Shown piece by piece: positions 6,856-58,421 of a stretch of 64,000 nt of DNA; the first letter of the stretch is position 1, and every line of letters begins with the position of its first letter. This DNA is from Deltaproteobacteria bacterium (GTDB taxonomy: Bacteria > UBA10199 > GCA-002796325 > JACPFF01): positions 62,001 through 126,000 of the forward strand of contig JACPFF010000016.1 of the NCBI GenBank assembly GCA_016183065.1. Reading direction: 5' to 3'. The position numbers and the translations under genes were made by a program. The notes under the pieces were generated by a model. The model made no database searches and had not been told where the DNA came from. It saw nothing but the letters and a program-made list of their open reading frames with translations.

Positions 6856-9800
6856 ATGGAAACGGCATATCACTCACCCCTTTCGCCGTATGGTGCGTCG
6901 CACTGTGTGACGCAGGTACGGGAAGGGACGATTGTTCCCCTGATTGAATTTGGGGGGAATGCCATCGCCTATTGGGAGGAACTGGTTGGGCGGTATCATG
7001 AGTCGATGACCGTCCGGAATCTGGTCGATAGAGTCGCAAAAAAACTGAATGATACCATCGAATTATCGGATATTTCCACCAGCGGAATCCTCGCGCGCGG
7101 TCTCCCATTACAGCGCTGGCTGCAGGAACCGTCCGCCGTTCCTCCGGCAGACTATCTGGCCTCGGGAACGGTCTCCATGCCCCTCATTTTTTTGACGCAG
7201 ATCGGCCATGTCATCAGTTTGCGCGACCAGCATCCCATGCTCGGGGAGATTTTTGACCGGGCCGTGGGATATGTCGGCCACAGCCAAGGCGTGATGACCG
7301 GACTCTGTTTTGCCACGGGCCGCGAAGGGGAGGGCTTTGCGGAATTGGTCGAGGCGGTGGCCTGTTATTTCCTCTGGCAGGCGTTTCGCATGCAGCAGGC
7401 CCTCCTCCCCGGTCGGGTGACGCCCGCGGAATATGACGCCTCGACACACCGTGGCGACGGTGCCCCGGCGCCGATGGCCGCGATTGCCGGACTGGAGCGC
7501 CACGAAATCGAGACACTCCTCACGCAGGCACCAACGACCGGACCGGTCGTGATCTCGGTGATCAATGACTGGGACCGGATGGTCCTGTCAGGGAGCATGA
7601 CCGACCTCCTGCGGGTACGCGAGCAGTTGCTGCAGTGGGAAAGTGCCTGGACACACGATCTTGTCACCAAACATCGTCGCGTCGGATGGCAGTATCTCCA
7701 GATGTCGAGCCCGTTTCATTCCCCCTATATGGTCGCCACGCAGGGACAATTCGAACACGATCTCGTCCGTTTGGGGATCCACTTTGATGCCCATGCCTTG
7801 CGGGCGCCTCTCTATGGGACTGCGATGGGGAACAATCTCCAGCAGGCCGATGATCTCACCGCGGCCCTCATCGCCATGCAATGGACGGGGGCCGTGGACT
7901 GGCCCACGGTCTTGCGGAAGGCGACGCACCCGGCAGGAGGGGCGTGCGTGACGCATATTGTCGATTTTGGTCCGGGCGATGGCGTGGCCAAGATCACGGC
8001 CCGGCAGCAGCGGGGGCGCGGCATTGGGGTCATCATGGCCGCGACCGATGCCGGACGGACGCAGCTGCTCAGTGAGGATCCGGCGGCGGTTCCCCGTGGA
8101 GAGGATTGGGAACGGTTTCGGCCCCGGCTCCACGCGGTGGCATCGGTCCCTTCCTCTGACAGCCGCGCGACGCCGCGTTTGTGGCTCGACAACCGGTTTT
8201 CGCGCTTTACCAAGGTCCCGCCGATTTTCGGGGGAGGGATGACGCCAACGAGCGTGGAGATCGACATGGTGGTGGCCGCGGCGAATGCCGGATATCTGCA
8301 GGAATGGGCCGGCGGTGGACAGGTCACCGAGGCCATCTGGGATGGACGGGCTGACGAGCTCCGTCAGGCGTTGCTACCGGGGCGGGGGATCATCTTCAAT
8401 GCGCTCTATCTCGATCCCTATCTCTGGCGGCTCCATTTTCCGCGCATTCTGGAACAGAAGCGCCGCGGTATTCCCTACATCGGCATGACGATCTCTGCCG
8501 GCATTCCCGAGGTCGAGGAGGCCTCAAGAATTTTGCGGGCCTTGTTGGCGGAGGGGCTCTGGTGCAATGCCTTCAAACCGGGCAATGACGCACAGATCGC
8601 GCAGGTCTTGCAGATTGCCGACGCCAATCCGGATGTCACCTTGTTGATGCACGTCGAAGGCGGCAAGGCGGGGGGGCATCATAGCTGGGAAGATCTCCAC
8701 GGGCTGATCTTGCGCAATTACGCGGCCATTCGCGTGCGCGCCAACGTGATCCTCTGTGTCGGCGGTGGCATCGGGACACCGGAAGCGGCTGCGTGCTGGC
8801 TTATGGGGAGCTGGCATCATCGCGACACCCTCCCGGTGATGCCGGTCGATGCGGTCTTTCTCGGCACGCGGCTCATGGCCTGCAAGGAGGCCAAGACCTC
8901 GCCGCAGGTGAAGGCGCAATTGGTCCGATTGCAGGGGACCACCGAATGGATCCGTCCGCAGCAGGTCTGTGGCGGAATGACGTCACAAAAATCGCAGATG
9001 GATGCGGATATCCATTGTGCCGAGTCCGGGGCCACCCGTGCAGGGCGTCTCCTCGATGCGCTGGCCGGACAACCACGCGAGACGATCGTTGCGCGGAAAC
9101 AAGAGATCGTTGCACTCCTGGCCAAGACCGCCAAGCCGTATTTTGGCGATCTGCCGGCCATGACTTATGCCGGTGTCTTGGCACGGATGGTTGCGCTGAT
9201 GGCCCCCGGCGCTATTGCTCCCCATCTTCCCCACGATGGTCCCTGGTACGATCGGAGTTTTCGCGAGCGGGCACTGGCCTGGGCGCAGCGCGCGGAGGCC
9301 CGTTGCGCACCGCGCACCTCTGGTGCAGCTCGCTGGGTGGGGGACCCGCGGCAGCTCGACGATCCCGCGCAATGTCTCTCGGCACTGCGGGACCGCTATC
9401 CGGCGATGGAGACGACACGCCTCCATGCAGAGGATGTGGCCTATTTTCTTTTCCTCTGCCGGCAACCGGGGAAACCGGTCAATTTTGTGCCGGTCATCGA
9501 TGAAGACGTGCGGCGTTGGTACAAGGCCGACAGCCTCTGGCAATCGCATGATCCGCGGTACCCCGCCGATGCCGTCATTACGGTCCCAGGACCGGAAGCC
9601 GTGCGGAGTATCACCGCCATGGATGAGCCCATTGCCACGGTCTTTTCCGCATTTGAGCAGGCCGCGATTGCCGCGGTAGAGCGCGCGGATGCAACCCGTG
9701 ACAGGGAAAGGCCGCTGATCAGTTTTGTGGGCGAGGGAGTACCGACGGCATGCACCGAGCTGACCACCGCAGTCCTTGCGCGCACACCACGCGGCGCCAA

Positions 9801-12800
9801 GACCGTCTACACGCTCACGGCCGGTCCCGCGACAGTCCCCGATGGCCGCGAGTGGCGTGCCGCGATTGCCCAGTGGGGGAGCGGGCCACTCTGCGCGTTT
9901 CTCCGCGCCCCGGCGTGGTGGGTGGAAGGGCGCACGGTCCCGAATCACGCGGAACGGTTGTTGCAACCGCTCCCCGGTGAGACATGGCAAGTGACGGTCC
10001 GCAATGGGCGCGTGCACGAACTCGCCACGTCATGGTGCACGATCGCGATTCGCGGAGATCATCTCTCGTGGACTCTCCGATCCCAGTCATCAGCGCCATC
10101 GATGCCGGAGATGACACTGCGCTATGGCTGGTGTCCCGAGAACGGGATGGTTCCGATCCGTGCGAACGATGCCGAAAACCGGCGGGCCATGCTCGGACTC
10201 TATGCGGCCGTATGGACCGGGACGACGGACGCCGGCGAGATCCTGCCGCTGCGCGTCGGGACGACCTTCGAAGGGAAAGTGCGTATCACGGCTGAGGCCA
10301 TCCGGGCCTTTGTGGCCGCGACCGGCGAGACCGCTGCCCCCTGCATCTCTGGAGACGTGGCTCCGCCGGCGATGGCGGTCTGCTGTGCCTGGGCCCCATT
10401 TGCGCGGGCCTTGCTTGCCTGCGGAACGGTCGCCGATCTGTTGCAACTCGTGCATACGAAACAGACCATCGAGATGGTGCGACCGATGCCGATTTGCGCG
10501 GGCGACCCCTTGCGTACGCGGCTCACGATCACCGCGATTCGGTCCGAGGCCCATGGCACGGTCGTGGCGTTTTCCGGCACAATACTGCGCGGTCGCGAGC
10601 CGTTGGTACGCCTGACGAGCGAATGTTTTCTCCGGGAGTGCTTTCTCGCCGCGGCGGCGAGTGATCCCTCCAAGACCGATCTGTCGACTTCGCACGCCGT
10701 GCCACTCGAGACGCCCTATACAGCGTTTACCTCTGTGATCACAGCCCCCCATACGGCCGAGGCCTATGCAGCGGCCTCTGGTGATCGCAACCCGATCCAT
10801 CGTGAGGGGCCTCTGGCGGTGCTGGCGGGATTCGACGGGCCGATCATGCACGGCATGTGGAGTGCCGCCGCACTCCTGGCAGAAATGACACATCGCTGGG
10901 CGGACGGGGATCCCACGCGCATTGCCCGCTGTGCCGTGCAATTTGCCCAACCCCTCTTTCCCGGCGAACCCGCGACCATTCAGGCGCGGCATCTGGCCAT
11001 GCGCAGCGCCGCCAGTTGCCTTGAGGCGCAAGTGCGTACGGAACGGGGCGTGATTGCCACGGCGCAGGTCGATCTCTGGCCGGCATCGACGGCCTATCTC
11101 TTTACGGGCCAGGGGTCACAACAGGTCGGCATGGGGATGGCCGCCTATGCGCGGTCGGCAGCGGTGCGCGACGTGTGGGATCGTGCGGAGGCCTTTTGTC
11201 GTGCACGCTACGGTTTTTCCATCCTGACGATTGTCCGGGAGAATCCGACGGTGCTCCACCTGCCATTGCCGCACGGGGGGATCGAGACCATTCGGCATCC
11301 TCGCGGAGTCCTCCATCTGACACAATTCACGCAGGTCGCACTCACGGTCGTGGCGATTGCGGGGGTCGCGGAACTCCGGGAGCGGGGATGCGATCATCCG
11401 CGGGCCATTTTTGCCGGGCATTCGCTCGGCGAATATGCGGCACTCTCCGCCTCCGGCATTCTTCCGCTCGAGACGGTGTTGTCATCGGTGTATCATCGCG
11501 GACTGACCATGCAGCATTATGTGCCGCGCACTGCCGATGGCGTCTCTCCGTATCGCATGGCTGTGGTCAGACCCAATCTCGTCGGCATGTGCGAGGACGA
11601 TCTGCAGGCGGACATTGCCCGGATTCTTCAGCAGAGAGCGGGGAGTCTCGAGATCGTAAATTTCAACATCACGGGTGAGCAATATGCCGTCACGGGGGAG
11701 ACCGCACTCCTCAAAACACTGGAGGAACGTCTGCAGGTACGGGCGTCTGCGCGTGGTGTCGACAAACCGCCGATGCTCATGCTCGAGGGGATTGATGTCC
11801 CGTTTCACTCCACGGTCCTGCGCGAGGGGGTGCCAGCATTTCGGGCGACGTTGGAGGAGACCATCCCGGCCCGCATCGATCCTGCAGCACTCATTGGGCG
11901 ATATATCCCCAATCTGAATGCCGACCCCTTTGCGATTGAGCGCGCCTATGTCGAAGCCGTGGCGACGCAGACCGACAGTCCGCTGCTCCGCGCGCTCCTG
12001 GCGAGACCGGTCGGCGATCGGGCATGGCGCCCTGCGGCGGTGGCGCGGACGCTGTTGATTGAATTGCTGGCCTACCAATTTGCCTCGCCCGTGCAATGGA
12101 TACGGACACAGGAACTCCTGTTGACCGACCCACGGTGCCGTGTGGCACACGTGGTCGAGATCGGTCCGCAGCCGGTCCTCGCGAATATGCTCCGTCGAAC
12201 CCTCAAACATCTCCCGGTGCAGCGCGCGCCGTCTATTGCCCATATCGAGCAGGATCGGGCCGTGGTCTTTTGCCTGCGTCCCGATGCCGGGCCTGCGGAG
12301 ACTTCGTCTCCCGCGGCGGTCAGCGAGCTCCGCGAGCGAGAAGGGGGGGGGCCATCACACTCCGCACAGTCTTCGACTGTGCTTCGCGGCCCAGCACAGC
12401 TGGGTCTTGACCCGGCTTTACCCGTTGGGGGGGGAGTGGCGACGACCGAGTCCGGGGACCCAGCGCAGCTGGGTGGACGAGGAAGTCCCCGCAGGCGAGA
12501 GCCGGAGGGGACGCGAGCTCCCCAGGGTTTTCAGCAGCCGCACAGCGGCGCTGAAGGGGGGACCCAACGGGCTTTGCCCGTTGGGGGGGCGACGCGAGCC
12601 CCTGTAATCGACGTTCCATATGATGTGACGACCGGTTTGCGCGCGCTGATGGCGCTCAAACTCCGTCTCCGACCCGATGAGATTGCCCCGAGCGACACGA
12701 TCGAACGGCTCACGCGGGGCAATTCGGCACGACGCAATGAGATCCTCGCGGATATCGGTGCGGAATTCCAGGTCGGCGCCATCGATGAGGCCCACAATAA

Positions 12801-15800
12801 ACCCGTCAGCGAGCTGATCGCCCTCATCACGGCCAAGGGGAGTTACACGGCTCCCGGTCCGTATTTGCGGGTGGCGACGGATCACGCGATCACGCAGGGG
12901 CTCCCCTTGTCACGCGCGGAGATCCTCACTCATCTGCAACGGACGTGGCAACTGGCCGACGGTCGGTTGCTGGCACTCACCGTGCTCCTGCCGTGTGCCG
13001 TGCGGCACGGTGTCTCCAGTGGCAGTGGACCGCTCTCGCCGATCGGGTTGGAGCACAAAATGGGCGCGCGCGAGGTCGCAACAGCGTGGCTCGACCGCTT
13101 GGTGGAGTGGTATGGCCTCCTGCATGACGTCCATGTCCCGCGCCGCGCAGAGACGACCGCAGGGGGTGGTGCCACCGTGGATGCCGCCGCGCTCGAGGCG
13201 CTGGAACAGAAATATTTCGGACGGGAGGGACTGCTGGGCGATGTGACGACCGCCCTGTTGCGTGCCGGCAATCGCGATCCCTATCAACCGGTGCTCGAGG
13301 CCGATCAGGAATTGTTGAAGGCGACTATTGGAGGGGCTCACGTCGCCCCCTCCAGCGGCAAAGCCGCTGGAGCCTCCCCTTCAACGCCGCGGTGCGGCTT
13401 GGGCGTGAGCCCGTGGGGCCCCACGCACGAGCTTGCGCTCTATCGTGGGGCCCTGGGGCCGCAGTTTGAACGGGTCATGGCTCCCTGCTTCGATGCAGAG
13501 CGTGCGGTCACGCTGAGCAGTCACTGGAACTGGGCGCGCCGGGATCTCATCGACCTCTATTGGCGGGTGGAGAGGGGCAGCTGTCCGATTGCCAAGGCGC
13601 GCCGGGAAGGGACGGCGATTGCACAACGTGCCGACGAGATGGTGGTCGTCACCGCCGCCTATTGTGCAGCCCGTGCCGTGTCCGAGGGACGCACAGTCCA
13701 GGCCAGACTCTTTGCCCGCATTCAGAAAGAGGCCCAGCAGGTGTTGCGCACGGCTCCCGCTCTGCGCCCGTCGCCGGACGTTGTCGCGGCCGTGGAACGG
13801 CTGTTGTCGCACGGCGGCCTCCCCGATGTTGTGAGGCAGGCCGTGCGTATGGTGCTTCGTGACGGCCTCTCGCTCGCCGGACAGGTGGTGTTGGTCACGG
13901 GTGCGGGGCCGGGGTCGATCGGTGCGGAAATTGCCGGCTATGCCTTGCAGGGAGGGGCGACGGTGATTGTCGCCTCCTCCCGTCTCGATCAGGACCGCGT
14001 GTTGTGGTGGCGCGAGCGGTACCAGCGCGATGGCGCCCGGGGCGCGACATTGGTCCTCCTCCCTGCCAATCAGGGCAATCAGGCCGATTGTCGCTCGCTC
14101 GTCCGCTGGATCTCCGCCGAATATGGCCATCTCGATCTCCTCTTCCCCTTCGCGGCCATCAAGGAGTTCGGCGATGTGACCACCATGGATGCCGGCGCGG
14201 CGACCGCGACCTGGCGCGTCCTGGTGCAGGGGGTGGAGTGGTTGACCGCTGCCGTGGCCGAGGAGAATGCCGCACGCAATCTGGCTCCACACGCCACCAC
14301 GATCTCTCTCCCGGGATCGCCCAATCAGGGCCTCCTGGGGGGCGATGGGGCCTACGGGGCCTCCAAGGCCGCGCTCGAGGTGTTGACGCGTCGGTGGCGC
14401 TCCGAGTTTTCCGCCTGGGGACGGTACACCCGCATGATCGGGGCACAGATCGGCTGGACGCGCGGGACCGGCCTGATGCAGGCCAATGACGCGATCGCGC
14501 AGGCACTCGAGGCGCGGACCGGTTGTCAGACCTTTGCCACAACGGAGATGGGGTTTCTCCTGGTCGCGCTGATGCATCCCTCGCTGCGCGCCTTGGCCAC
14601 GCAGGAACCGCTGTGGGTCTCGCTGACCGGCGGTTTTGAACGGATCCCGGAGATCGGCGCTGTGCTGCGGAGTGTGCGTGAAGCACTGGCTGCGCACCGG
14701 GCGGACCCTGCGATGCCCTCCACGGCGGTGGAGATCCCTTTCAAGGCCGACCCGGCATATTTTGCCTTTCCACCGCTGTCAGATCCGGAACAACGCCCCA
14801 CGCCTATGTCGGCAAAGGCCTTGCCACCCGACGAGGTGTATGTCGTGGTCGGTTACGGCGAGGTCTCGCCCTATGGCAGTGCACGGACCCGATGGGAAGT
14901 CGAATGCGGCGGACTCTCCAATGAGGGATGTCTCGAATTGGCATGGTTGACCGGTCGTATCCGGTTTTCCGCGGGTCGCGATTACGTGGGATGGCTCGAC
15001 GCCGCCAGCGGGGAACCGGTCCCCGACCACGCCATGAAGGCCCGTTATGAAACGATCCTGCGGAAACATGCGGGGGTCCGTTTGGTCGATCCCGCTGCGC
15101 AGGGGTTCGATCCCCGGGCGTTGACTGTCCTGGCCGATGTCCAATTGCCGGGACCGCTCGTGATTCCCGTGACATCGCAGGCCGAAGGGGAGGCGTACTG
15201 TGCCAAGTTCCCCGGCGAGGCCGAACTGGTCGTCGATCGGCTCGACGCGTCGCCCTCACACTATGGTGTCCGTCTTCCCAAGGGGTCGGTGATCAAGGTG
15301 CCGATGGCCGCGCGGCTTTCGCGATATGTTGCCGGGCAGATTCCGACCGGCTGGGATGCGACACGCTACGGTCTTCCACAGGATCTGATCCAACAGGTCG
15401 ATCGTAATACCCTCTTCAACTTCGTCGCCACGATCGAGGCCTTTCACAGCATGGGCGGATTGCCCGACGAGATGTGCGATGTGCTCCATCCCACGCGGAT
15501 CGGAAATACCCAGGGGAGCGGGATGGGCGGACAGCAATCGCTTGAGCGGCTCTATCACGATCATCGCGAAGGACGTCCCCGCAAGGGGGATACGCTCCAG
15601 GAGATGCTGATTAACGTCATGGGCGGATGGATCACGCAGAGCTACGTCGGGAGCTATGGCCCCATGGTGCATCCGGTGAGTGCGTGTGCGACCGCGCTGG
15701 TGTCACTCGATACGGCCGTGAATCTCCTTGCGGCCCGGAAGGCGGATTTTGTGGTGGCCGGGGGCTTTGATGACCTGAGCGCCGAGGGGATGATCGGCTT

Positions 15801-16701
15801 TAGCGATATGGATGCCACTGCCAATGCCGATGTCATGCTGGCCAAGGGGATTGCACCGGAACGGTTCAGTCGCCCCAATGACCGGCGTCGTGGCGGGTTT
15901 GTGGAGGGGCAGGGTGGGGGGACGATCCTCGTCACCCGTCTCTCCATTGCCGCGCAATTGGGACTTCCGGTCTATGCCGTGGTGGCCCACGTGGCCACAC
16001 ACGCCGACGGGATCCACACGTCGATTCCGGCCCCGGGTCTCGGCCTCCTGGGGTTGGTGAGCCCGATGCGCGATGGCACGACGCCGCTCGGCCGGGCCCT
16101 TGCCGATTTTGGGCTGACCGCGGACGACATTGTCGTCGTCTCCAAACACGATACCTCAACGCGCGCCAACGATCCGAACGAAAATCACCTCCACGATCAG
16201 ATCCAGCAGGTCTTGCAGCGCAGTGAAGGATGGCCGCTCCTCGTCCACTCGCAAAAAGCCCTGCTGGGGCACGCCAAGGGTGGTGCCGGGGCCTGGCAGA
16301 TCGGCGCGGCCCTGCAGATGCTGGCGACCGGGGTCATTCCGGGCAATCCGCACCTCGAAGATGTGGATCCCGCCATGCAGGCCTTCTCGCGACTCTGTTT
16401 CAGCGATCGGCCTGTGGCGACGCCGCCAGGCACCGTCCGCGCCGTGCTCCTGACTGCGCTCGGATTCGGACACATCGGGGCCGGTGCCCTGCTCGTTCAT
16501 CCTGATTATGCCCTGCGACTCTTGTCGAAGCGCGAATGGAACGGATATGTCGAGCGTCGGACGGTCCGGGAACGATGGCGCATCGAGCGGGAATGGGCCA
16601 TCCGCATGGGGACCACGCCTGCGTTTGTCCAGCGGCGGGGGAAACCGTACGACGATGCCGAGGCGGAAGTCGCGATGCTGTTAGGGTCGGGGGGATCTTA
16701 G
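6856..16701 (+). CDS. fas: Type I fatty acid synthase, AT-ER-DH-MPT-ACP-KR-KS
   Basis: A 3281-residue megasynthase that builds long-chain acyl-CoA from acetyl- and malonyl-CoA. The start is the ATG at 6856, behind a strong AGGAGG; upstream in-frame starts lack a ribosome site. Domains: acetyltransferase (GHSQG, Ser143); FMN-type enoyl reductase (~450-700, FGGGMTPTS and HSWEDL); dehydratase (~1000-1390, GDRNPIH and GPIMHG); malonyl/palmitoyl transferase (FTGQGSQ, GHSLGEY with Ser1523); fungal-type ACP (RGNSARRNE, phosphopantetheine Ser1957, with the extra helical half); ketoreductase (VTGAGPGSIG ~2348; Tyr2500 and Lys2504); ketosynthase (Cys2944, His3098, His3139). No phosphopantetheinyl transferase domain is fused at the C-terminus, unlike the fungal alpha chain; acpS is nearby instead. 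Two repeat inserts sit in interdomain linkers (residues ~1812-1917 and 2157-2190). Known families with this order are fungal and actinobacterial. Confidence 0.96.
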   Translation: METAYHSPLSPYGASHCVTQVREGTIVPLIEFGGNAIAYWEELVGRYHESMTVRNLVDRVAKKLNDTIELSDISTSGILARGLPLQRWLQEPSAVPPADYLASGTVSMPLIFLTQIGHVISLRDQHPMLGEIFDRAVGYVGHSQGVMTGLCFATGREGEGFAELVEAVACYFLWQAFRMQQALLPGRVTPAEYDASTHRGDGAPAPMAAIAGLERHEIETLLTQAPTTGPVVISVINDWDRMVLSGSMTDLLRVREQLLQWESAWTHDLVTKHRRVGWQYLQMSSPFHSPYMVATQGQFEHDLVRLGIHFDAHALRAPLYGTAMGNNLQQADDLTAALIAMQWTGAVDWPTVLRKATHPAGGACVTHIVDFGPGDGVAKITARQQRGRGIGVIMAATDAGRTQLLSEDPAAVPRGEDWERFRPRLHAVASVPSSDSRATPRLWLDNRFSRFTKVPPIFGGGMTPTSVEIDMVVAAANAGYLQEWAGGGQVTEAIWDGRADELRQALLPGRGIIFNALYLDPYLWRLHFPRILEQKRRGIPYIGMTISAGIPEVEEASRILRALLAEGLWCNAFKPGNDAQIAQVLQIADANPDVTLLMHVEGGKAGGHHSWEDLHGLILRNYAAIRVRANVILCVGGGIGTPEAAACWLMGSWHHRDTLPVMPVDAVFLGTRLMACKEAKTSPQVKAQLVRLQGTTEWIRPQQVCGGMTSQKSQMDADIHCAESGATRAGRLLDALAGQPRETIVARKQEIVALLAKTAKPYFGDLPAMTYAGVLARMVALMAPGAIAPHLPHDGPWYDRSFRERALAWAQRAEARCAPRTSGAARWVGDPRQLDDPAQCLSALRDRYPAMETTRLHAEDVAYFLFLCRQPGKPVNFVPVIDEDVRRWYKADSLWQSHDPRYPADAVITVPGPEAVRSITAMDEPIATVFSAFEQAAIAAVERADATRDRERPLISFVGEGVPTACTELTTAVLARTPRGAKTVYTLTAGPATVPDGREWRAAIAQWGSGPLCAFLRAPAWWVEGRTVPNHAERLLQPLPGETWQVTVRNGRVHELATSWCTIAIRGDHLSWTLRSQSSAPSMPEMTLRYGWCPENGMVPIRANDAENRRAMLGLYAAVWTGTTDAGEILPLRVGTTFEGKVRITAEAIRAFVAATGETAAPCISGDVAPPAMAVCCAWAPFARALLACGTVADLLQLVHTKQTIEMVRPMPICAGDPLRTRLTITAIRSEAHGTVVAFSGTILRGREPLVRLTSECFLRECFLAAAASDPSKTDLSTSHAVPLETPYTAFTSVITAPHTAEAYAAASGDRNPIHREGPLAVLAGFDGPIMHGMWSAAALLAEMTHRWADGDPTRIARCAVQFAQPLFPGEPATIQARHLAMRSAASCLEAQVRTERGVIATAQVDLWPASTAYLFTGQGSQQVGMGMAAYARSAAVRDVWDRAEAFCRARYGFSILTIVRENPTVLHLPLPHGGIETIRHPRGVLHLTQFTQVALTVVAIAGVAELRERGCDHPRAIFAGHSLGEYAALSASGILPLETVLSSVYHRGLTMQHYVPRTADGVSPYRMAVVRPNLVGMCEDDLQADIARILQQRAGSLEIVNFNITGEQYAVTGETALLKTLEERLQVRASARGVDKPPMLMLEGIDVPFHSTVLREGVPAFRATLEETIPARIDPAALIGRYIPNLNADPFAIERAYVEAVATQTDSPLLRALLARPVGDRAWRPAAVARTLLIELLAYQFASPVQWIRTQELLLTDPRCRVAHVVEIGPQPVLANMLRRTLKHLPVQRAPSIAHIEQDRAVVFCLRPDAGPAETSSPAAVSELREREGGGPSHSAQSSTVLRGPAQLGLDPALPVGGGVATTESGDPAQLGGRGSPRRREPEGTRAPQGFQQPHSGAEGGTQRALPVGGATRAPVIDVPYDVTTGLRALMALKLRLRPDEIAPSDTIERLTRGNSARRNEILADIGAEFQVGAIDEAHNKPVSELIALITAKGSYTAPGPYLRVATDHAITQGLPLSRAEILTHLQRTWQLADGRLLALTVLLPCAVRHGVSSGSGPLSPIGLEHKMGAREVATAWLDRLVEWYGLLHDVHVPRRAETTAGGGATVDAAALEALEQKYFGREGLLGDVTTALLRAGNRDPYQPVLEADQELLKATIGGAHVAPSSGKAAGASPSTPRCGLGVSPWGPTHELALYRGALGPQFERVMAPCFDAERAVTLSSHWNWARRDLIDLYWRVERGSCPIAKARREGTAIAQRADEMVVVTAAYCAARAVSEGRTVQARLFARIQKEAQQVLRTAPALRPSPDVVAAVERLLSHGGLPDVVRQAVRMVLRDGLSLAGQVVLVTGAGPGSIGAEIAGYALQGGATVIVASSRLDQDRVLWWRERYQRDGARGATLVLLPANQGNQADCRSLVRWISAEYGHLDLLFPFAAIKEFGDVTTMDAGAATATWRVLVQGVEWLTAAVAEENAARNLAPHATTISLPGSPNQGLLGGDGAYGASKAALEVLTRRWRSEFSAWGRYTRMIGAQIGWTRGTGLMQANDAIAQALEARTGCQTFATTEMGFLLVALMHPSLRALATQEPLWVSLTGGFERIPEIGAVLRSVREALAAHRADPAMPSTAVEIPFKADPAYFAFPPLSDPEQRPTPMSAKALPPDEVYVVVGYGEVSPYGSARTRWEVECGGLSNEGCLELAWLTGRIRFSAGRDYVGWLDAASGEPVPDHAMKARYETILRKHAGVRLVDPAAQGFDPRALTVLADVQLPGPLVIPVTSQAEGEAYCAKFPGEAELVVDRLDASPSHYGVRLPKGSVIKVPMAARLSRYVAGQIPTGWDATRYGLPQDLIQQVDRNTLFNFVATIEAFHSMGGLPDEMCDVLHPTRIGNTQGSGMGGQQSLERLYHDHREGRPRKGDTLQEMLINVMGGWITQSYVGSYGPMVHPVSACATALVSLDTAVNLLAARKADFVVAGGFDDLSAEGMIGFSDMDATANADVMLAKGIAPERFSRPNDRRRGGFVEGQGGGTILVTRLSIAAQLGLPVYAVVAHVATHADGIHTSIPAPGLGLLGLVSPMRDGTTPLGRALADFGLTADDIVVVSKHDTSTRANDPNENHLHDQIQQVLQRSEGWPLLVHSQKALLGHAKGGAGAWQIGAALQMLATGVIPGNPHLEDVDPAMQAFSRLCFSDRPVATPPGTVRAVLLTALGFGHIGAGALLVHPDYALRLLSKREWNGYVERRTVRERWRIEREWAIRMGTTPAFVQRRGKPYDDAEAEVAMLLGSGGS
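12290..12606 (-). repeat. Modular palindromic insert, copy A (in FAS MPT-ACP linker)
   Basis: A GC-rich stretch that translates within the FAS as a Gly/Pro/Arg/Ser-rich linker between the malonyl transferase and the ACP. On the minus strand it begins AGGGGCTCGCG and shares the modules of copies B-E. These are a hairpin with loop CAAAG (here AACGGGCAAAGCCCGTT), the 'CAGCGCCGCTGTGCGGCT' block, a CTCGTCCACCC hairpin, and a CGGACTCGGTCGTCGCCAC block. Extra hairpins (CACAGTCTTCGACTGTG and others) lie at the left end. It is inserted antisense to the gene yet leaves the frame open. The left boundary is approximate. Confidence 0.8.
13326..13424 (+). repeat. Modular palindromic insert, copy B (in FAS ACP-KR linker)
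   Basis: A 99-bp insert (33 codons) beginning TATTGGAGGGGCTCACG and ending GGGGCCCCAC, in the same orientation as the FAS gene. It holds the CCAGCGGCAAAGCCGCTGG hairpin and the CAACGCCGCGGTGCGGCT block. Taking it out would join 'LLKAT' directly to 'HELALYRG'. The two bases AC occur at both junctions. A further complementary stretch (GTGGGGCCC at about 13455) suggests the hairpin structure may continue slightly beyond the right end. Confidence 0.85.
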
Positions 16702-17357
16702 TCATGCTGCATAGCCCGCCAGCGTGTGGCGGCATGACGCAGAATGCGCCGCGCAAGGCGGGTCTTGTCGAGGAGCGGCAGATGGACCATGGGGCCATGA
16801 TGATCCAGGAGGACCGCACGTTGCCGGGGCGCACCGATTGCGGCAACGGTGTTGGCGACGAGCATGTTACAGCCTGTGGCGCGCAATTTTTTTCGCGCCT
16901 GACGGAGGAGATTGCGGGATTCGAGTGCAAATCCGACCACCATCTGGTCCGCGCGTTTCCGGCGGGTCACGGTGGCCAGGATGTCCGGATTCGCGACCAG
17001 CGAGAGGGTGAGCCGCTGCGTGCCACTCCGCTTCATTTTGTGCCGGTGGATGGTTGCCGGGCGAAAGTCGGCGACCGCCGCGGCCATGATGACGATGTCG
17101 GCGGTGGGGGCCGTGCGGACCGTGGCACGATACATGTCGCGCGCCGTGATCACCCGGATGAGGCGGACGCGTCGTGGCGGCACCAACGCGGCCGGTCCGC
17201 TGATGAGCGTGACGCGTGCGCCACGCTCCCGGGCCAGGCGCGCCAATGCGTACCCGAGCTTCCCCGACGATGCATTGGCCACAAAACGGACCGGGTCGAT
17301 CGCTTCGTGCGTGGGTCCCGCGGTAATGACCACATGACAGTGAGAGAGTATGCCCAC
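16698..17357 (-). CDS. coaB: Stand-alone phosphopantothenoylcysteine synthetase (CoaB domain)
   Basis: A 219-residue protein matching only the C-terminal half of the usual bifunctional Dfp/CoaBC. It would join 4'-phosphopantothenate and cysteine with CTP on the way to CoA. Visible are ITAGPTHEAIDPVRFV with the following NASSGK nucleotide-binding segment (residues 11-33), 'AAAVADFRP' and the 'KMKR' lysine loop. No flavin decarboxylase (CoaC) half is attached or adjacent. The gene converges on the FAS gene and their stop codons overlap by several bases. Its start is 48 bp from the divergent acpS start, so CoA supply and ACP activation share one intergenic region. Confidence 0.88.
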   Translation of the reverse strand: MGILSHCHVVITAGPTHEAIDPVRFVANASSGKLGYALARLARERGARVTLISGPAALVPPRRVRLIRVITARDMYRATVRTAPTADIVIMAAAVADFRPATIHRHKMKRSGTQRLTLSLVANPDILATVTRRKRADQMVVGFALESRNLLRQARKKLRATGCNMLVANTVAAIGAPRQRAVLLDHHGPMVHLPLLDKTRLARRILRHAATRWRAMQHD

Positions 17358-17404: not shown

Positions 17405-18036
17405 ATGATCCGCGGCATCGGCATTGATTTGTGCGAGATTCCGGCGATGGAGGCCCGTCTGGCCGACCCGGCCTCCCATTTTCTCGCAACACATTTCACG
17501 GCCCAGGAGCGTGCGACGCTCGCGGAGCGCGGGAGCGGGTGGCCGGCGCAGCACGCGGCAGCGCGGTATGCCGCCAAGGAAGCGGTGATCAAGGCCCTCT
17601 CCCAGGCGGCGGGTGGTGCCGTACTCCTCCCCACTATTGGAGGGGCTCACGTACCCTGCGGCTCCGCCTCCGGGTACTCCCTCGTCCACCCGCTTCGCGG
17701 GTGCCCGGACTCGGTCGTCGCCACTGCCCCCTCCAGCGGCAAAGCCGCTGGAGCCTCCCCTTCAACGCCGCGGTGCGGCTGGGTCGTGGGGCCCCGGACG
17801 CCAGTCCGGGGGGTGTCGTGCGCGGGCGAAGCCTTCTCCCAGGGTGCCACGGGCGTAAGCCCGTGGGGCCCCACGGTCGATTATCGCGAGATCGAAATTG
17901 TCGCAGTGGGCACCGGGGTGCCGCAGGTGCGATTGCATGGGGCGGTGCGCACCGTGGCCACACAACTCGGCGTCGCGCAGATTGCGCTCTCGTTGTCGCA
18001 TGAAGCGGCAATGGCCGTTGCCATGGTCGTCATCGT

Positions 18037-18040
<4 letters not shown>
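17405..18040 (+). CDS. acpS: Holo-[acyl carrier protein] synthase carrying an 80-codon insert
   Basis: Transfers 4'-phosphopantetheine from CoA to the ACP serine; the evident substrate is Ser1957 of the adjacent FAS. The family motifs GIGIDLCEI (Asp8) and ARYAAKEAVIKAL (Lys58, Glu59) are intact. At 211 residues it is far longer than the usual 120-130. The excess is a single in-frame block of 80 codons (copy C of the palindromic insert) between 'GAVLLP' and 'VDYREIEIV', a point where the normal family runs straight into the next beta strand. Without it the protein is 131 residues. The stop overlaps the carboxylase start (ATGA). Confidence 0.92.
17635..17874 (+). repeat. Modular palindromic insert, copy C (in acpS)
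   Basis: The longest bounded copy, 240 bp (80 codons), in frame in acpS and in the gene's orientation. It begins TATTGGAGGGGCTCACG and ends GGGGCCCCAC; CCCCAC is found at both junctions. In order it holds a CACCCGCTTCGCGGGTG hairpin, the CGGACTCGGTCGTCGCCAC block, the CCAGCGGCAAAGCCGCTGG hairpin, the CAACGCCGCGGTGCGGCT block, and GC-rich hairpins around CCGGACGCCAGTCCGG and CCACGGGCGTAAGCCCGTGG. Compared with copy B, the additional modules account for the extra length. Confidence 0.88.
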
Positions 18041-23658
<5,618 letters not shown>

Positions 23659-24436: not shown

Positions 24437-24471
24437 CGGTGCCTCCCCCAGGCACCGGCCCCCGATGGGGC
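24437..24471. terminator. Two adjacent GC hairpins after the ComEA-like gene
   Basis: CGGTGCC pairs with GGCACCG around a TCCCCCA loop, followed directly by GCCCC-CGAT-GGGGC. The position just past the stop codon suggests transcription termination, but there is no T-run, so an intrinsic terminator is not proven. Confidence 0.4.
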
Positions 24472-24525
24472 ATCTGCGCAGGCTATGACGTCCATGACTG
24501 GCCCGTGATGTCGGAGGGAAAAGAG

Positions 24526-24561
24526 TGGACGATGCCGTCTAAACATGTCTATAATAGACAT
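24526..24561 (+). promoter_or_regulatory. Toxin-antitoxin promoter with palindromic operator over the -10
   Basis: A perfect 17-bp palindrome, ATGTCTATAATAGACAT (24545-24561), contains a consensus TATAAT -10 (24550-24555). A partial -35 (TGGACG, 24526-24531) is 18 bp upstream. The predicted transcription start falls at or within a base or two of the antitoxin ATG at 24562, and no ribosome site is visible. The message may therefore be leaderless. A palindrome over the -10 fits autorepression by the antitoxin. Confidence 0.7.
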
Positions 24562-24852
24562 ATGAAAAAGGTCTCTATAGCCGAACTCAAGAACCGTCTG
24601 AGTCAATATCTTCGGTATGTCAAAGCGGGTGAGCCCGTTGTGATTATGGAACGCAACCAGCCCGTCGCACATATGATCCCTATTCCGCCACCCGGTAAAA
24701 ACCCTGATGAACGTCTCTCACGTCTCGAGGCAAGGGGGATCGTTCGTCGCGGACGTTCGGCGAGGCTTCGCGGATACCAATTCCCCGATGCGGATGGAGC
24801 GGAGAGCGGAGTGGTCGAGGCATTACGGCGCGAGCGTGAGACCGGACGATGA
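24562..24852 (+). CDS. Phd/YefM-family antitoxin
   Basis: A 96-residue protein with the classic N-terminal DNA-binding half of Phd/YefM antitoxins: MKKVSIAELKNRLSQYLRYV, then GEPVVIMERNQPVAHMIP. The C-terminal half is charged and probably wraps the toxin. The start at 24562 matches the family's N-terminus; the upstream in-frame ATG at 24532 would put the operator palindrome inside the gene. The stop overlaps the PIN toxin start (ATGA), as is usual for toxin-antitoxin operons. Confidence 0.9.
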   Translation: MKKVSIAELKNRLSQYLRYVKAGEPVVIMERNQPVAHMIPIPPPGKNPDERLSRLEARGIVRRGRSARLRGYQFPDADGAESGVVEALRRERETGR

Positions 24853-25313
24853 GGTTCTGGGACACCTCGGCGATTTTGCCCCTTCTCGTGACCGAGAAAG
24901 AATCTGTCTTGTGTCGCCGGCTGCTCGAAGACGATCCAGAGATGCTGGTCTGGGTGCTGACACCGACGGAAATCTACTCTGCCTGTTATCGAAAAGTCCG
25001 CGAGGGAATGCTTGGCGAAGACGTTATCAGTGATGTCCGATCACGCCTGATGGTCTTGGAGACCTGCTGGTCGACCGTGGTCTCCTTTGAGGTGGTCCAG
25101 GCCATCGCGACGCGGCTTTTGGCGGTGCATCCATTACGGGCGGCAGACGCGTTGCAATTGGCCGCCGCGCTGGTTGCTTTTGAAGAACGACCCATCGGGG
25201 CGGAATTTGTCTCCCTGGATGCCCGTCTGAACCACGCCGCGCAACGCGAAGGCTTTCAGATCCTGCCGGATGATCCGGCAAATCGGTCGGCGTCTCCCTG
25301 TGCCTGCAAGTAG
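24849..25313 (+). CDS. PIN-domain toxin (VapC type)
   Basis: A 154-residue PIN-domain ribonuclease, predicted to cleave RNA when free of its antitoxin. The acidic quartet is visible: Asp5 (MRFWDTSAI), Glu41 (LTPTEIYSA), Asp100 (RAADALQLAAA) and Asp124 (VSLDARL). The last dozen residues after 'FQILP' (Cys/Ala-rich) are unlike the family and overlap a possible antisense small gene. The toxin is coupled to the upstream Phd antitoxin by an ATGA overlap. Confidence 0.9.
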   Translation: MRFWDTSAILPLLVTEKESVLCRRLLEDDPEMLVWVLTPTEIYSACYRKVREGMLGEDVISDVRSRLMVLETCWSTVVSFEVVQAIATRLLAVHPLRAADALQLAAALVAFEERPIGAEFVSLDARLNHAAQREGFQILPDDPANRSASPCACK

Positions 25314-25460: not shown

Positions 25461-26477
25461 CTACCCCAGCAGACTGTGGAACTCTTCCTTGAGATCAAGG
25501 TGGACGAGGTCGAGGAGGGCGTGTGTGGGCGTCTTCCCCGTGTAGAGGATGTCGTGCACGGCGCTGCAGATTGGGGCAAAGACACCGGTCCGCTGGATGA
25601 GTAACTGGACCGCCTTGGTGGTTTCCACCCCTTCGGCGACCATCCGCATTTCTCGCATCACGTCGTGGCATGTTCGGCCACGGCCGATTTCGATCCCGAC
25701 ATGGCGATTGCGTGACAGGGCGCCGGTGCAGGTGAGGACCAGGTCGCCCAGGCCGGAGAGGCCGGCAAAGGTGAGTGGGTCGGCGCCGAGGGCCTTGCCG
25801 AGCTTGATCATCTCGTAGAGCCCGCGCGTAATGAGTGCGGCGCGTGTATTGTGACCGAGCCCCATCCCTTCGACCATGCCGGTGGCCAGGGCCATGACGT
25901 TTTTGAGGGCCCCGCCGAGTTCCACGCCGATCACGTCGCGATGGGTAAACGTCAGAAAATAGTCGGTGCGAAACATCTCTTGCACACGAGTCGTGGTCTG
26001 TGCATCCGTTCCCGCAATGACCACCGCCGTCGGTTGTCGTTCGGCGACCTCCTTGGCAAAGCTCGGCCCGGAGAGGACGCAGCACCGGGCATGCGCCGAT
26101 GCGGGCAAGAGCTCGGCAAGGATCTCCGACATGCGCATCCCCGTGCCGCATTCAATCCCCTTTGCGCAGCAGACAATGGTTGTGGTCGCGGTCAGATGCG
26201 GGAGAGACTGTTGCATGACTGCACGGACGTGCTGGCTTGGCATCACGAGAACCCACACCGTAGTATCCGCGAGTGCGGCTGCCAATTGCGATGTGGCGAC
26301 GATACCTGCCGGGAGTGTGATGTCGGAAAGATAGAGGGGATTTCTCTGCGTCCGTGTGATGGTCTCGGCCACTTCCGCTTCATAGGCCCAGAGCGTCACC
26401 CCATGGCCGCGTTCCGCGAGGACCTTGGCCAAGGCCGTGCCCCAACTCCCTGCACCGAGAATGGCAATCTGTTCCAT
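25461..26477 (-). CDS. gpsA: Glycerol-3-phosphate dehydrogenase [NAD(P)+]
   Basis: A 338-residue enzyme that reduces dihydroxyacetone phosphate to sn-glycerol 3-phosphate for phospholipid synthesis. It has the N-terminal dinucleotide fold GAGSWGTALA, 'CCAKGIE', 'LSGPSFAKEVA', the catalytic-lysine segment GGALKNVMALATGM, and 'GLSGLGDLVLTCTG'. The length is normal. The gene is divergent from the PilZ gene, with a 75-bp gap. Confidence 0.95.
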   Translation of the reverse strand: MEQIAILGAGSWGTALAKVLAERGHGVTLWAYEAEVAETITRTQRNPLYLSDITLPAGIVATSQLAAALADTTVWVLVMPSQHVRAVMQQSLPHLTATTTIVCCAKGIECGTGMRMSEILAELLPASAHARCCVLSGPSFAKEVAERQPTAVVIAGTDAQTTTRVQEMFRTDYFLTFTHRDVIGVELGGALKNVMALATGMVEGMGLGHNTRAALITRGLYEMIKLGKALGADPLTFAGLSGLGDLVLTCTGALSRNRHVGIEIGRGRTCHDVMREMRMVAEGVETTKAVQLLIQRTGVFAPICSAVHDILYTGKTPTHALLDLVHLDLKEEFHSLLG

Positions 26478-57500: not shown

Positions 57501-58421
57501 GTCAAGCGTTGGTCGCAGTACGTGGGCCACCGCGATGCGTGGGGGGGTGTGCAACCATGCCGACAACAGACGGACAAACGCGGCCGGGGCATCGATGTGG
57601 GGCCAGTGGCCGGCCTCCCGGAGTGTGGTCAACGTTGCGGTGGGGAAATGTCGGTGGATCACGGGGAGATCCTCCTCGCTCAGGTAATCGGACCGTCCGC
57701 CCCGGACAAAACGTGTGGGGCCTGTAAACGTGCCGTGCAGCGGTGGCATGCCGATCAGGGCGTCATAGTGGGCCGCGATCGCCTCGAGATGCCATTGCCA
57801 TCGATAGTGGGGCCCCGGACTGATGTCCGGGGCCCCACGACCCAGCCGCACCGCGGCGCTGAGGGGGAGGCTCCAGCGGCTTTGCCGCTGGAGGGGGCGA
57901 CGTGAGCCCCTCCAATAATGGCCGTTTGTCTCGCGCACCAGATTGGCCAGAAGAAATTGGCGTGTCACGCGATCGGGGACGCGTTCCGCCAACTGCCGGT
58001 CGACCTCCATACGGCTCTGCACCGTTGTCACATCGACCGATTGCAGGGCGGCAATGATGGGGGAGTGTATCGGGGGATAGGCTTTTGGCGCAATATCGAC
58101 GACCATCAGTCGTGCCACATGGTGGGGCTGGCGTGTGGCAACGACCATGGCGACTTTGCCTCCCATGGAATGGCCGAGCAGCGAGAGATGGGTCAGGTGC
58201 TGTGCCTGCAGAAATTGTTCCACATCCGCGGCCATGATCTCATAGTCCATGACCGGATCATGGAACGAGGCCCCGTGGTTGCGCAGGTCGAGCAAGAAGA
58301 CGGCATGGGTCTCCTGCAATTGCTTGGCAATATGGCGCCAATTCTTCCCAGAACCAAAGAGTCCGTGCAAAATGACGAGCGGTGGGCCACTCCCAATCTG
58401 TTCACACGTGAGGGTTGGCAT
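57495..58421 (-). CDS. Alpha/beta hydrolase with a 37-codon in-frame insert
   Basis: A 308-residue serine hydrolase-fold protein. It shows 'VILHGLFGSGKNW' (oxyanion loop), the nucleophile elbow GHSMGG (Ser85) and a late 'EAGHWPH' catalytic His. It resembles the YbfF/abhydrolase-1 esterases. After 'LANLVRETNGHY' the frame runs through copy D of the palindromic insert (37 codons) and resumes at 'HYRWQWHLEAIAAHY'; His-Tyr is duplicated at the junctions. Removing the insert gives a normal-length family member. The insert falls in the cap region, where extra residues may be tolerated. Confidence 0.88.
   Translation of the reverse strand: MPTLTCEQIGSGPPLVILHGLFGSGKNWRHIAKQLQETHAVFLLDLRNHGASFHDPVMDYEIMAADVEQFLQAQHLTHLSLLGHSMGGKVAMVVATRQPHHVARLMVVDIAPKAYPPIHSPIIAALQSVDVTTVQSRMEVDRQLAERVPDRVTRQFLLANLVRETNGHYWRGSRRPLQRQSRWSLPLSAAVRLGRGAPDISPGPHYRWQWHLEAIAAHYDALIGMPPLHGTFTGPTRFVRGGRSDYLSEEDLPVIHRHFPTATLTTLREAGHWPHIDAPAAFVRLLSAWLHTPPRIAVAHVLRPTLDK
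57807..57917 (-). repeat. Modular palindromic insert, copy D (in alpha/beta hydrolase)
   Basis: A 111-bp insert in the orientation of the hydrolase gene, from TATTGGAGGGGCTCACG to GGGGCCCCAC. It contains the CCAGCGGCAAAGCCGCTGG hairpin, the CGCCGCGGTGCGGCT block and a terminal GGGGCCCCGGAC / GTCCGGGGCCCC hairpin. It is translated in a different reading frame from copies B and C, so the element is stop-free in at least two sense frames. Confidence 0.88.

What the first reader, a model, noticed from the sequence alone, without database searches (positions are those of the whole stretch)
6856..16701. Complete type I fatty acid synthase in a deltaproteobacterial-looking genome
Seen: one 3281-residue chain with intact active sites in the order AT-ER-DH-MPT-ACP-KR-KS. 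It includes the fungal-type ACP with Ser1957 in RGNSARRNE and a ketosynthase with Cys2944, His3098 and His3139. Established: this layout is known from fungi (as two chains) and actinobacteria; most other bacteria use the dissociated type II system. Inference: acquisition from, or shared ancestry with, an actinobacterial or fungal-type FAS, in a background of Geobacter-type cytochromes.
Basis: partly seen in the sequence, partly recalled or inferred. Interest (0 to 1): 0.92.

Follow-up and report, generated by a model that had tools for sequence, protein, structure and literature searches.

The report
Fungal-style fatty-acid factory in obscure bacteria
An uncultured bacterium, and scattered members of its class, carry the giant one-protein fatty-acid synthase thought to be limited to fungi and mycobacteria-like bacteria, next to a eukaryote-style malonyl-CoA enzyme and without detectable standard bacterial synthase genes, and other members of the class hold the closest bacterial relatives of the fungal enzyme found here.

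Summary
It heads a lipogenic gene group: FAS-I, AcpS (17405-18040), then a single-chain acetyl-CoA carboxylase (18037-23658) whose centre folds like the AC4-AC5 part of eukaryotic ACC. CoaB lies between FAS and AcpS on the other strand. The same FAS-AcpS-ACC order occurs elsewhere in the class and in uncultured Myxococcota. The genome has one ketosynthase C-domain (this one), no FabA/FabZ and no PlsX; across 46 genomes of the class PlsX is in none and FabA/FabZ in 4. FAS-I occurs in 13 of 46. KS and ER trees put the window's enzyme with its own class. Grouping it with actinobacterial or with fungal FAS is rejected (AU p 7.9e-6; 3.9e-4, KS). Fungal FAS groups with other members of this class in both trees (100/99, 100/100). 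So acquisition from an actinobacterial or fungal FAS is not supported; shared ancestry is. Genome-wide repeats inserted in frame in FAS and AcpS show the locus is native, not contamination. Function is inferred from homology. The direction of transfer to or from fungi is open.

The parts
6856..16701 (+). Type I fatty acid synthase, 3281 aa, AT-ER-DH-MPT-ACP-helical-KR-KS, all catalytic motifs present
6979..8172 (+). Acetyltransferase domain region (S143 of GHSQG at 7282, H288 at 7717)
8173..9645 (+). Enoyl reductase plus FAS-specific helical domain PF08354 (H608 at 8677)
10270..11013 (+). Dehydratase region: FAS1_DH plus MaoC hot-dog (H1332 at 10849)
11095..12280 (+). Malonyl/palmitoyl transferase (S1523 at 11422, H1651 at 11806)
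12340..12620 (+). Interspersed-repeat insertion, in frame, in the linker between MPT and ACP
12610..12975 (+). Fungal/actinobacterial-type ACP domain (S1957 at 12724)
13320..13440 (+). Second in-frame repeat insertion, between ACP and the helical/KR part
13882..14478 (+). Ketoreductase domain (Y2500, K2504)
15253..16485 (+). Ketosynthase domain (C2944, H3098, H3139); lacks the extra KS segment found in fungal FAS
16701..17357 (-). CoaB-type phosphopantothenate-cysteine ligase (DFP C-terminal domain), opposite strand between FAS and AcpS
17405..18040 (+). AcpS holo-ACP synthase, 211 aa, split by a repeat-derived insert of about 85 aa
17628..17877 (+). Interspersed repeat (51 matches genome-wide) lying in frame inside AcpS
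18037..23658 (+). Single-chain acetyl-CoA carboxylase, 1873 aa: BC, BCCP (AMKM motif from residue 635), central region with AC4-AC5-like fold, CT; start overlaps the AcpS stop
25464..26477 (-). GpsA, NAD-dependent glycerol-3-phosphate dehydrogenase (phospholipid backbone); neighbour, link inferred

Best explanation
This is the organism's de novo fatty-acid synthase. The single-chain ACC makes malonyl-CoA, AcpS puts the phosphopantetheine arm on ACP Ser1957, AT loads acetyl, MPT loads malonyl, KS condenses, KR-DH-ER reduce, and after repeated cycles MPT releases acyl-CoA for phospholipid synthesis. By analogy with mycobacterial FAS-I the chain should form a hexameric barrel. The enzyme was inherited within, or long resident in, its own bacterial class, where FAS-I stands in for type II synthesis in a minority of members; it was not taken from actinobacteria or fungi. 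Shown here: gene content, domain order, catalytic motifs, gene neighbourhood, phylogeny, absence of type II marker families. Inferred: activity, assembly, co-transcription, acyl-CoA product.
For: Complete domain order and active sites. FAS-AcpS-ACC adjacency here, in G037, another family of the class (ACC, AcpS N-half hit), and in Myxococcota MAGs L058, L061, L065 with ACC frames of 1818-1936 aa. Own genome: one KS_C hit, the FAS itself; no FabA/FabZ; no PlsX; only two weak FabH-like frames, in a separate cluster. Class of 46: PlsX 0, FabA/FabZ 4, FAS-I 13. KS and ER trees place the window with G001 (99/91 and 100/97) and then other class members; AU tests reject window+Actinobacteria and window+fungi. 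A genome-wide repeat family inside FAS and AcpS shows the locus is native.
Against: No expression, protein or lipid data. The genome is 88.8% complete, so absence of type II genes in this one genome is not proof; the class-wide pattern carries that claim. AcpS carries an 85-aa repeat insert whose effect is unknown. Most class members lack FAS-I and 16 of 29 good-quality genomes lack any KS_C, so fatty-acid scavenging is probably common in the class and could also operate here. The Myxococcota-labelled L056 and proteobacterium-labelled L053 fall among the class sequences, so some transfer between lineages is likely. In the KS tree without long branches the wider class grouping beyond G001 is not resolved as one clade. 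PlsB/PlsC-type acyltransferases were not searched for.
Confidence: 0.82

Rival explanations
1. The FAS-I was acquired by recent lateral transfer from an actinobacterium or a fungus.
For: Best solved-structure hits are mycobacterial FAS-I.
Against: KS and ER trees put it with its own class; holding it with Actinobacteria or with fungi is rejected (p 7.9e-6, 3.9e-4). It shares a gene group with class members and Myxococcota. Transfer between this class and Myxococcota or other lineages at some point is not excluded.
Confidence: 0.06
2. It is a specialised synthase (for example for an unusual storage or envelope lipid), while membrane fatty acids are scavenged.
For: Many relatives lack every KS_C and probably import fatty acids; FAS-I is patchy in the class.
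Against: Full saturating FAS domain set, AcpS and ACC next to it, no other KS_C in the genome.
Confidence: 0.12
3. The locus is decaying: repeat insertions have damaged FAS and AcpS.
For: Three in-frame repeat insertions; the close relative G001 has a frameshift and loss of the MPT active-site His segment in its assembly.
Against: All insertions keep the frame and lie outside the matched catalytic stretches; no stop in 9.8 kb; all motifs intact. The G001 defect may be an assembly error.
Confidence: 0.05
4. Binning or assembly artefact: an actinobacterial or fungal contig.
For: Draft assembly in 30 contigs.
Against: A 128-kb contig; genome-wide repeats inside the genes; close homologues in separate genomes of the same family, order and class.
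Confidence: 0.01

Closest known systems
Actinobacterial FAS-I (Mycobacterium, Corynebacterium, Nocardia)
   Same: Single chain of about 3100 aa, same domain order, same active sites; KS about 50% identical to M. tuberculosis and M. smegmatis, ER 480 bits
   Different: Separate clade (AU p 7.9e-6); here accompanied by a single-chain ACC next to FAS and AcpS, and no detectable type II markers in the genome
Fungal FAS (FAS1/FAS2)
   Same: Homologous domains and order
   Different: Fungal FAS is usually split inside MPT, carries a fused PPT and an extra KS segment; the window has none. Other members of the class (G008, G025 in KS; G008, G030 in ER) group with fungal FAS; G008 also has the extra KS segment, but with AcpS as a separate gene
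Actinobacterial/eukaryotic multidomain ACC (SACE_4237 type, PMC6491548)
   Same: BC, BCCP, central region and CT in one chain of about 200 kDa; central region folds like AC4-AC5 of yeast/human ACC (Z 11-13)
   Different: BC and CT score best against bacterial MCC/PCC-type subunits; placed next to FAS-I; no ACC-central Pfam match
[quoted passage not shown]
   Same: Single-chain bacterial carboxylase
   Different: LCC has 1093 aa and only weak CT similarity (E 9e-13)

Membership tests
FAS-I (fungal/actinobacterial type) | AT-ER-DH-MPT-ACP-KR-KS in one chain or collinear pair | tested here: met
FAS-I (fungal/actinobacterial type) | FAS-specific domains: PF08354 helical, Fas_alpha_ACP, FAS_I_H | tested here: met
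   among 14 control genomes PF08354 is found only in C. glutamicum
FAS-I (fungal/actinobacterial type) | Catalytic residues of each domain present | tested here: met
   alignments
FAS-I (fungal/actinobacterial type) | KS groups with FAS-I KS, not with FabF | tested here: met
FAS-I (fungal/actinobacterial type) | Hexameric barrel and acyl-CoA product | not testable with these tools
   needs biochemistry or cryo-EM
Actinobacterial FAS-I clade | Sequence falls within the actinobacterial clade | tested here: not met
   AU p 7.9e-6; only mycobacterial and one Micrococcales sequence sampled
Fungal FAS clade | Sequence falls with fungal FAS; extra KS segment; fused PPT | tested here: not met
   AU p 3.9e-4; KS match about 411 aa against about 497 aa in fungi; AcpS is a separate gene
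Polyketide/PUFA synthase | Full-length match to PKS or PfaA models | tested here: not met
   NCBIfam PKS and PfaA models score far under their cut-offs; FAS-I-specific Pfam domains present; no PKS rows were in the trees
Eukaryotic-type multidomain ACC | BC, BCCP and CT in one chain with an ACC-type central region | tested here: met
   domains; fold of central region (AC4-AC5 part only; the rest of the region is low-confidence)
Eukaryotic-type multidomain ACC | CT and BC group with eukaryotic/SACE_4237 homologues in trees | not tested
   PDB sequence search favoured bacterial PCC/MCC subunits; no tree built

The most novel reading that the evidence does not exclude
This bacterial class, which appears to have largely lost (or never had) type II synthesis, is a long-standing home of FAS-I and the lineage from which, or from whose close relatives, fungi obtained their fatty-acid synthase.
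Probability: 0.4. Interest if true: 0.92.

Novelty: new variant of a known kind. Interest (0 to 1): 0.8.

Why it matters
[quoted passage not shown] Here FAS-I appears in a class deposited as Deltaproteobacteria, in uncultured Myxococcota and in another small phylum, as an apparent replacement for type II synthesis and next to a eukaryotic-type ACC. Two independent domains join fungal FAS with sequences from this class rather than with Actinobacteria, which makes the origin of fungal FAS directly testable and offers natural intermediates: a single-chain fungal-like form with separate AcpS (G008) and a natural two-chain form (G003).

Tried and rejected
Viral contigs gave no relative. The G001 'two-chain' FAS was first read as a fungal-like split inside MPT, but it is a frameshift with a missing stretch of about 28 residues, so it is not used as evidence. 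G003's split, between MPT and ACP, looks genuine. FabH-like frames in the own genome were checked: weak matches in a separate cluster with an acyl-CoA dehydrogenase and a PreATP-grasp protein, not taken as FabH. Paper searches for FAS-I in these lineages found nothing relevant; the library lacks most subscription journals and preprints. Fungal contamination as the source of the fungal-like FAS in G008 was rejected: its contig carries bacterial UvrC, CysS, efflux and MFS genes and an uninterrupted 5655-aa frame. Six class FAS-I sequences as one clade without fungi were rejected by AU (p 4.6e-5).

Full report
The observation. The frame 6856-16701 is uninterrupted and gives 3281 residues.

The surroundings. 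AcpS follows at 17405-18040, and its stop overlaps the start of a 1873-aa single-chain acetyl-CoA carboxylase at 18037-23658. CoaB lies between FAS and AcpS on the other strand, so the FAS is not immediately adjacent to AcpS, and a single transcript is an inference. AlphaFold of the ACC central region is moderate overall (mean pLDDT 69), but its well-predicted part matches the AC4-AC5 part of yeast, Chaetomium and human ACC: the 17 best entries are all ACC, Z 10.9-13.2, the next unrelated row 8.4 (Foldseek ranks ACC first). The BC and CT parts score best against bacterial MCC/PCC-type subunits. A multidomain ACC of this general architecture is known from actinobacteria (PMC6491548). G037, in another family of the class, has a 1853-aa ACC behind its FAS with an AcpS-like hit between them. 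Myxococcota MAG loci L058, L061 and L065 have FAS frames of 3460-3761 aa followed by ACC frames of 1818-1936 aa.

The genome. G000 is 1.97 Mb in 30 contigs, 88.8% complete, 0.5% contaminated, with one KS_C match, which is this FAS. It has no FabA/FabZ, no PlsX, one weak PP-binding match and two weak FabH-like frames in an unrelated-looking cluster. Across the 46 held genomes of its class, PlsX is in 0, FabA/FabZ in 4, a KS_C in 20, FAS-I (PF08354) in 13; 16 of the 29 better genomes have no KS_C at all. Class members therefore either use FAS-I, rarely retain type II genes, or presumably import fatty acids. Most keep a small stand-alone ACP, whose use is unexplained.

Who they are. From memory only, I suspect the GTDB class UBA10199; this was not tested.

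Native, not foreign. A repeat family with 51 matches in the genome is inserted in frame in the FAS linker (12340-12620), between ACP and the helical part (13320-13440), and in AcpS (17628-17877). NCBIfam AcpS models match AcpS in two pieces that flank the insert. This ties the operon to the genome.

Phylogeny. The KS tree (36 rows) and the ER tree (23 rows), from independent domains, both place the window with G001 and then other class members. Myxococcota and Actinobacteria form other clades. L053 (labelled proteobacterium) and L056 (labelled Myxococcales) fall among the class sequences in the KS tree, which suggests some lateral movement or mislabelled MAGs. Fungal FAS joins G008 and G025 in KS (100/99) and G008 and G030 in ER (100/100). 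Removing the three longest class branches keeps the KS grouping of fungi with G008 and G025 (100/100), while the class members near the window then no longer form one resolved clade. AU tests on KS reject window+Actinobacteria, window+fungi, fungi+Actinobacteria, and six class members together without fungi. G008's KS scores 524 bits to fungal and 273 to mycobacterial FAS and carries the extra KS segment of fungi; its flanks are bacterial and a separate AcpS-like gene follows its FAS. In the ER tree fungi sit inside the bacterial set with weak support (91/77). The root of the KS tree is unstable, and only Ascomycota were sampled, so the direction of transfer is open.

Mechanism. By homology: ACC makes malonyl-CoA, AcpS activates the ACP, FAS-I runs the cycle and MPT releases acyl-CoA. 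Absence of PlsX fits direct use of acyl-CoA by PlsB/PlsC-type acyltransferases, which were not searched for. GpsA, which makes the glycerol-phosphate backbone, is nearby. Nothing here has been tested biochemically.

Verdict. The enzyme is a true FAS-I and a new member of that family. The system - FAS-I with AcpS and a multidomain ACC, in a class mostly without type II markers - is a variant for which I found no description in the papers searched. The larger interest is that the class contains the closest bacterial relatives of fungal FAS found here.

Noticed in passing
window 12340-12620, 13320-13440, 17628-17877, 57813-57923; L032: A family of palindromic interspersed repeats (about 90-250 bp, 51 matches genome-wide) inserted in frame into protein-coding genes, reminiscent of Rickettsia palindromic elements (comparison from memory).
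   Followed up: partly
class genomes, e.g. G002, G010, G011, G016, G017, G022: 16 of 29 good-quality genomes of this class have no ketosynthase C-domain and none of the 46 has PlsX: probable fatty-acid auxotrophs or users of an unrecognised route, although most keep a stand-alone ACP.
   Followed up: partly
L044 336-19697 (G023): A 6454-aa open frame joins proline dehydrogenase and aldehyde dehydrogenase (PutA-like) to a highly diverged FAS-I-like protein.
   Followed up: no
L043 1-9027 (G030): Fungal-type FAS-I with two Fas_alpha_ACP stretches in tandem.
   Followed up: no
L034 367-5013 and 5009-8755 (G003): Natural two-chain FAS-I split between MPT and ACP, a different point from the fungal split inside MPT.
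   Followed up: partly
L038/L086, G008 FAS N-terminus: The fungal-like FAS of G008 carries an unexplained N-terminal extension of more than 1000 residues.
   Followed up: no
L081-L083 (G173, G387 and relatives): A small separate phylum (5 genomes held, 6.6-10.8 Mb) has FAS-I in 4 of 5 genomes; its KS is sister to actinobacterial FAS-I.
   Followed up: partly
window 24439-25310: Phd/YefM antitoxin and PIN-domain toxin pair just downstream of the ACC.
   Followed up: no
   Followed up: no
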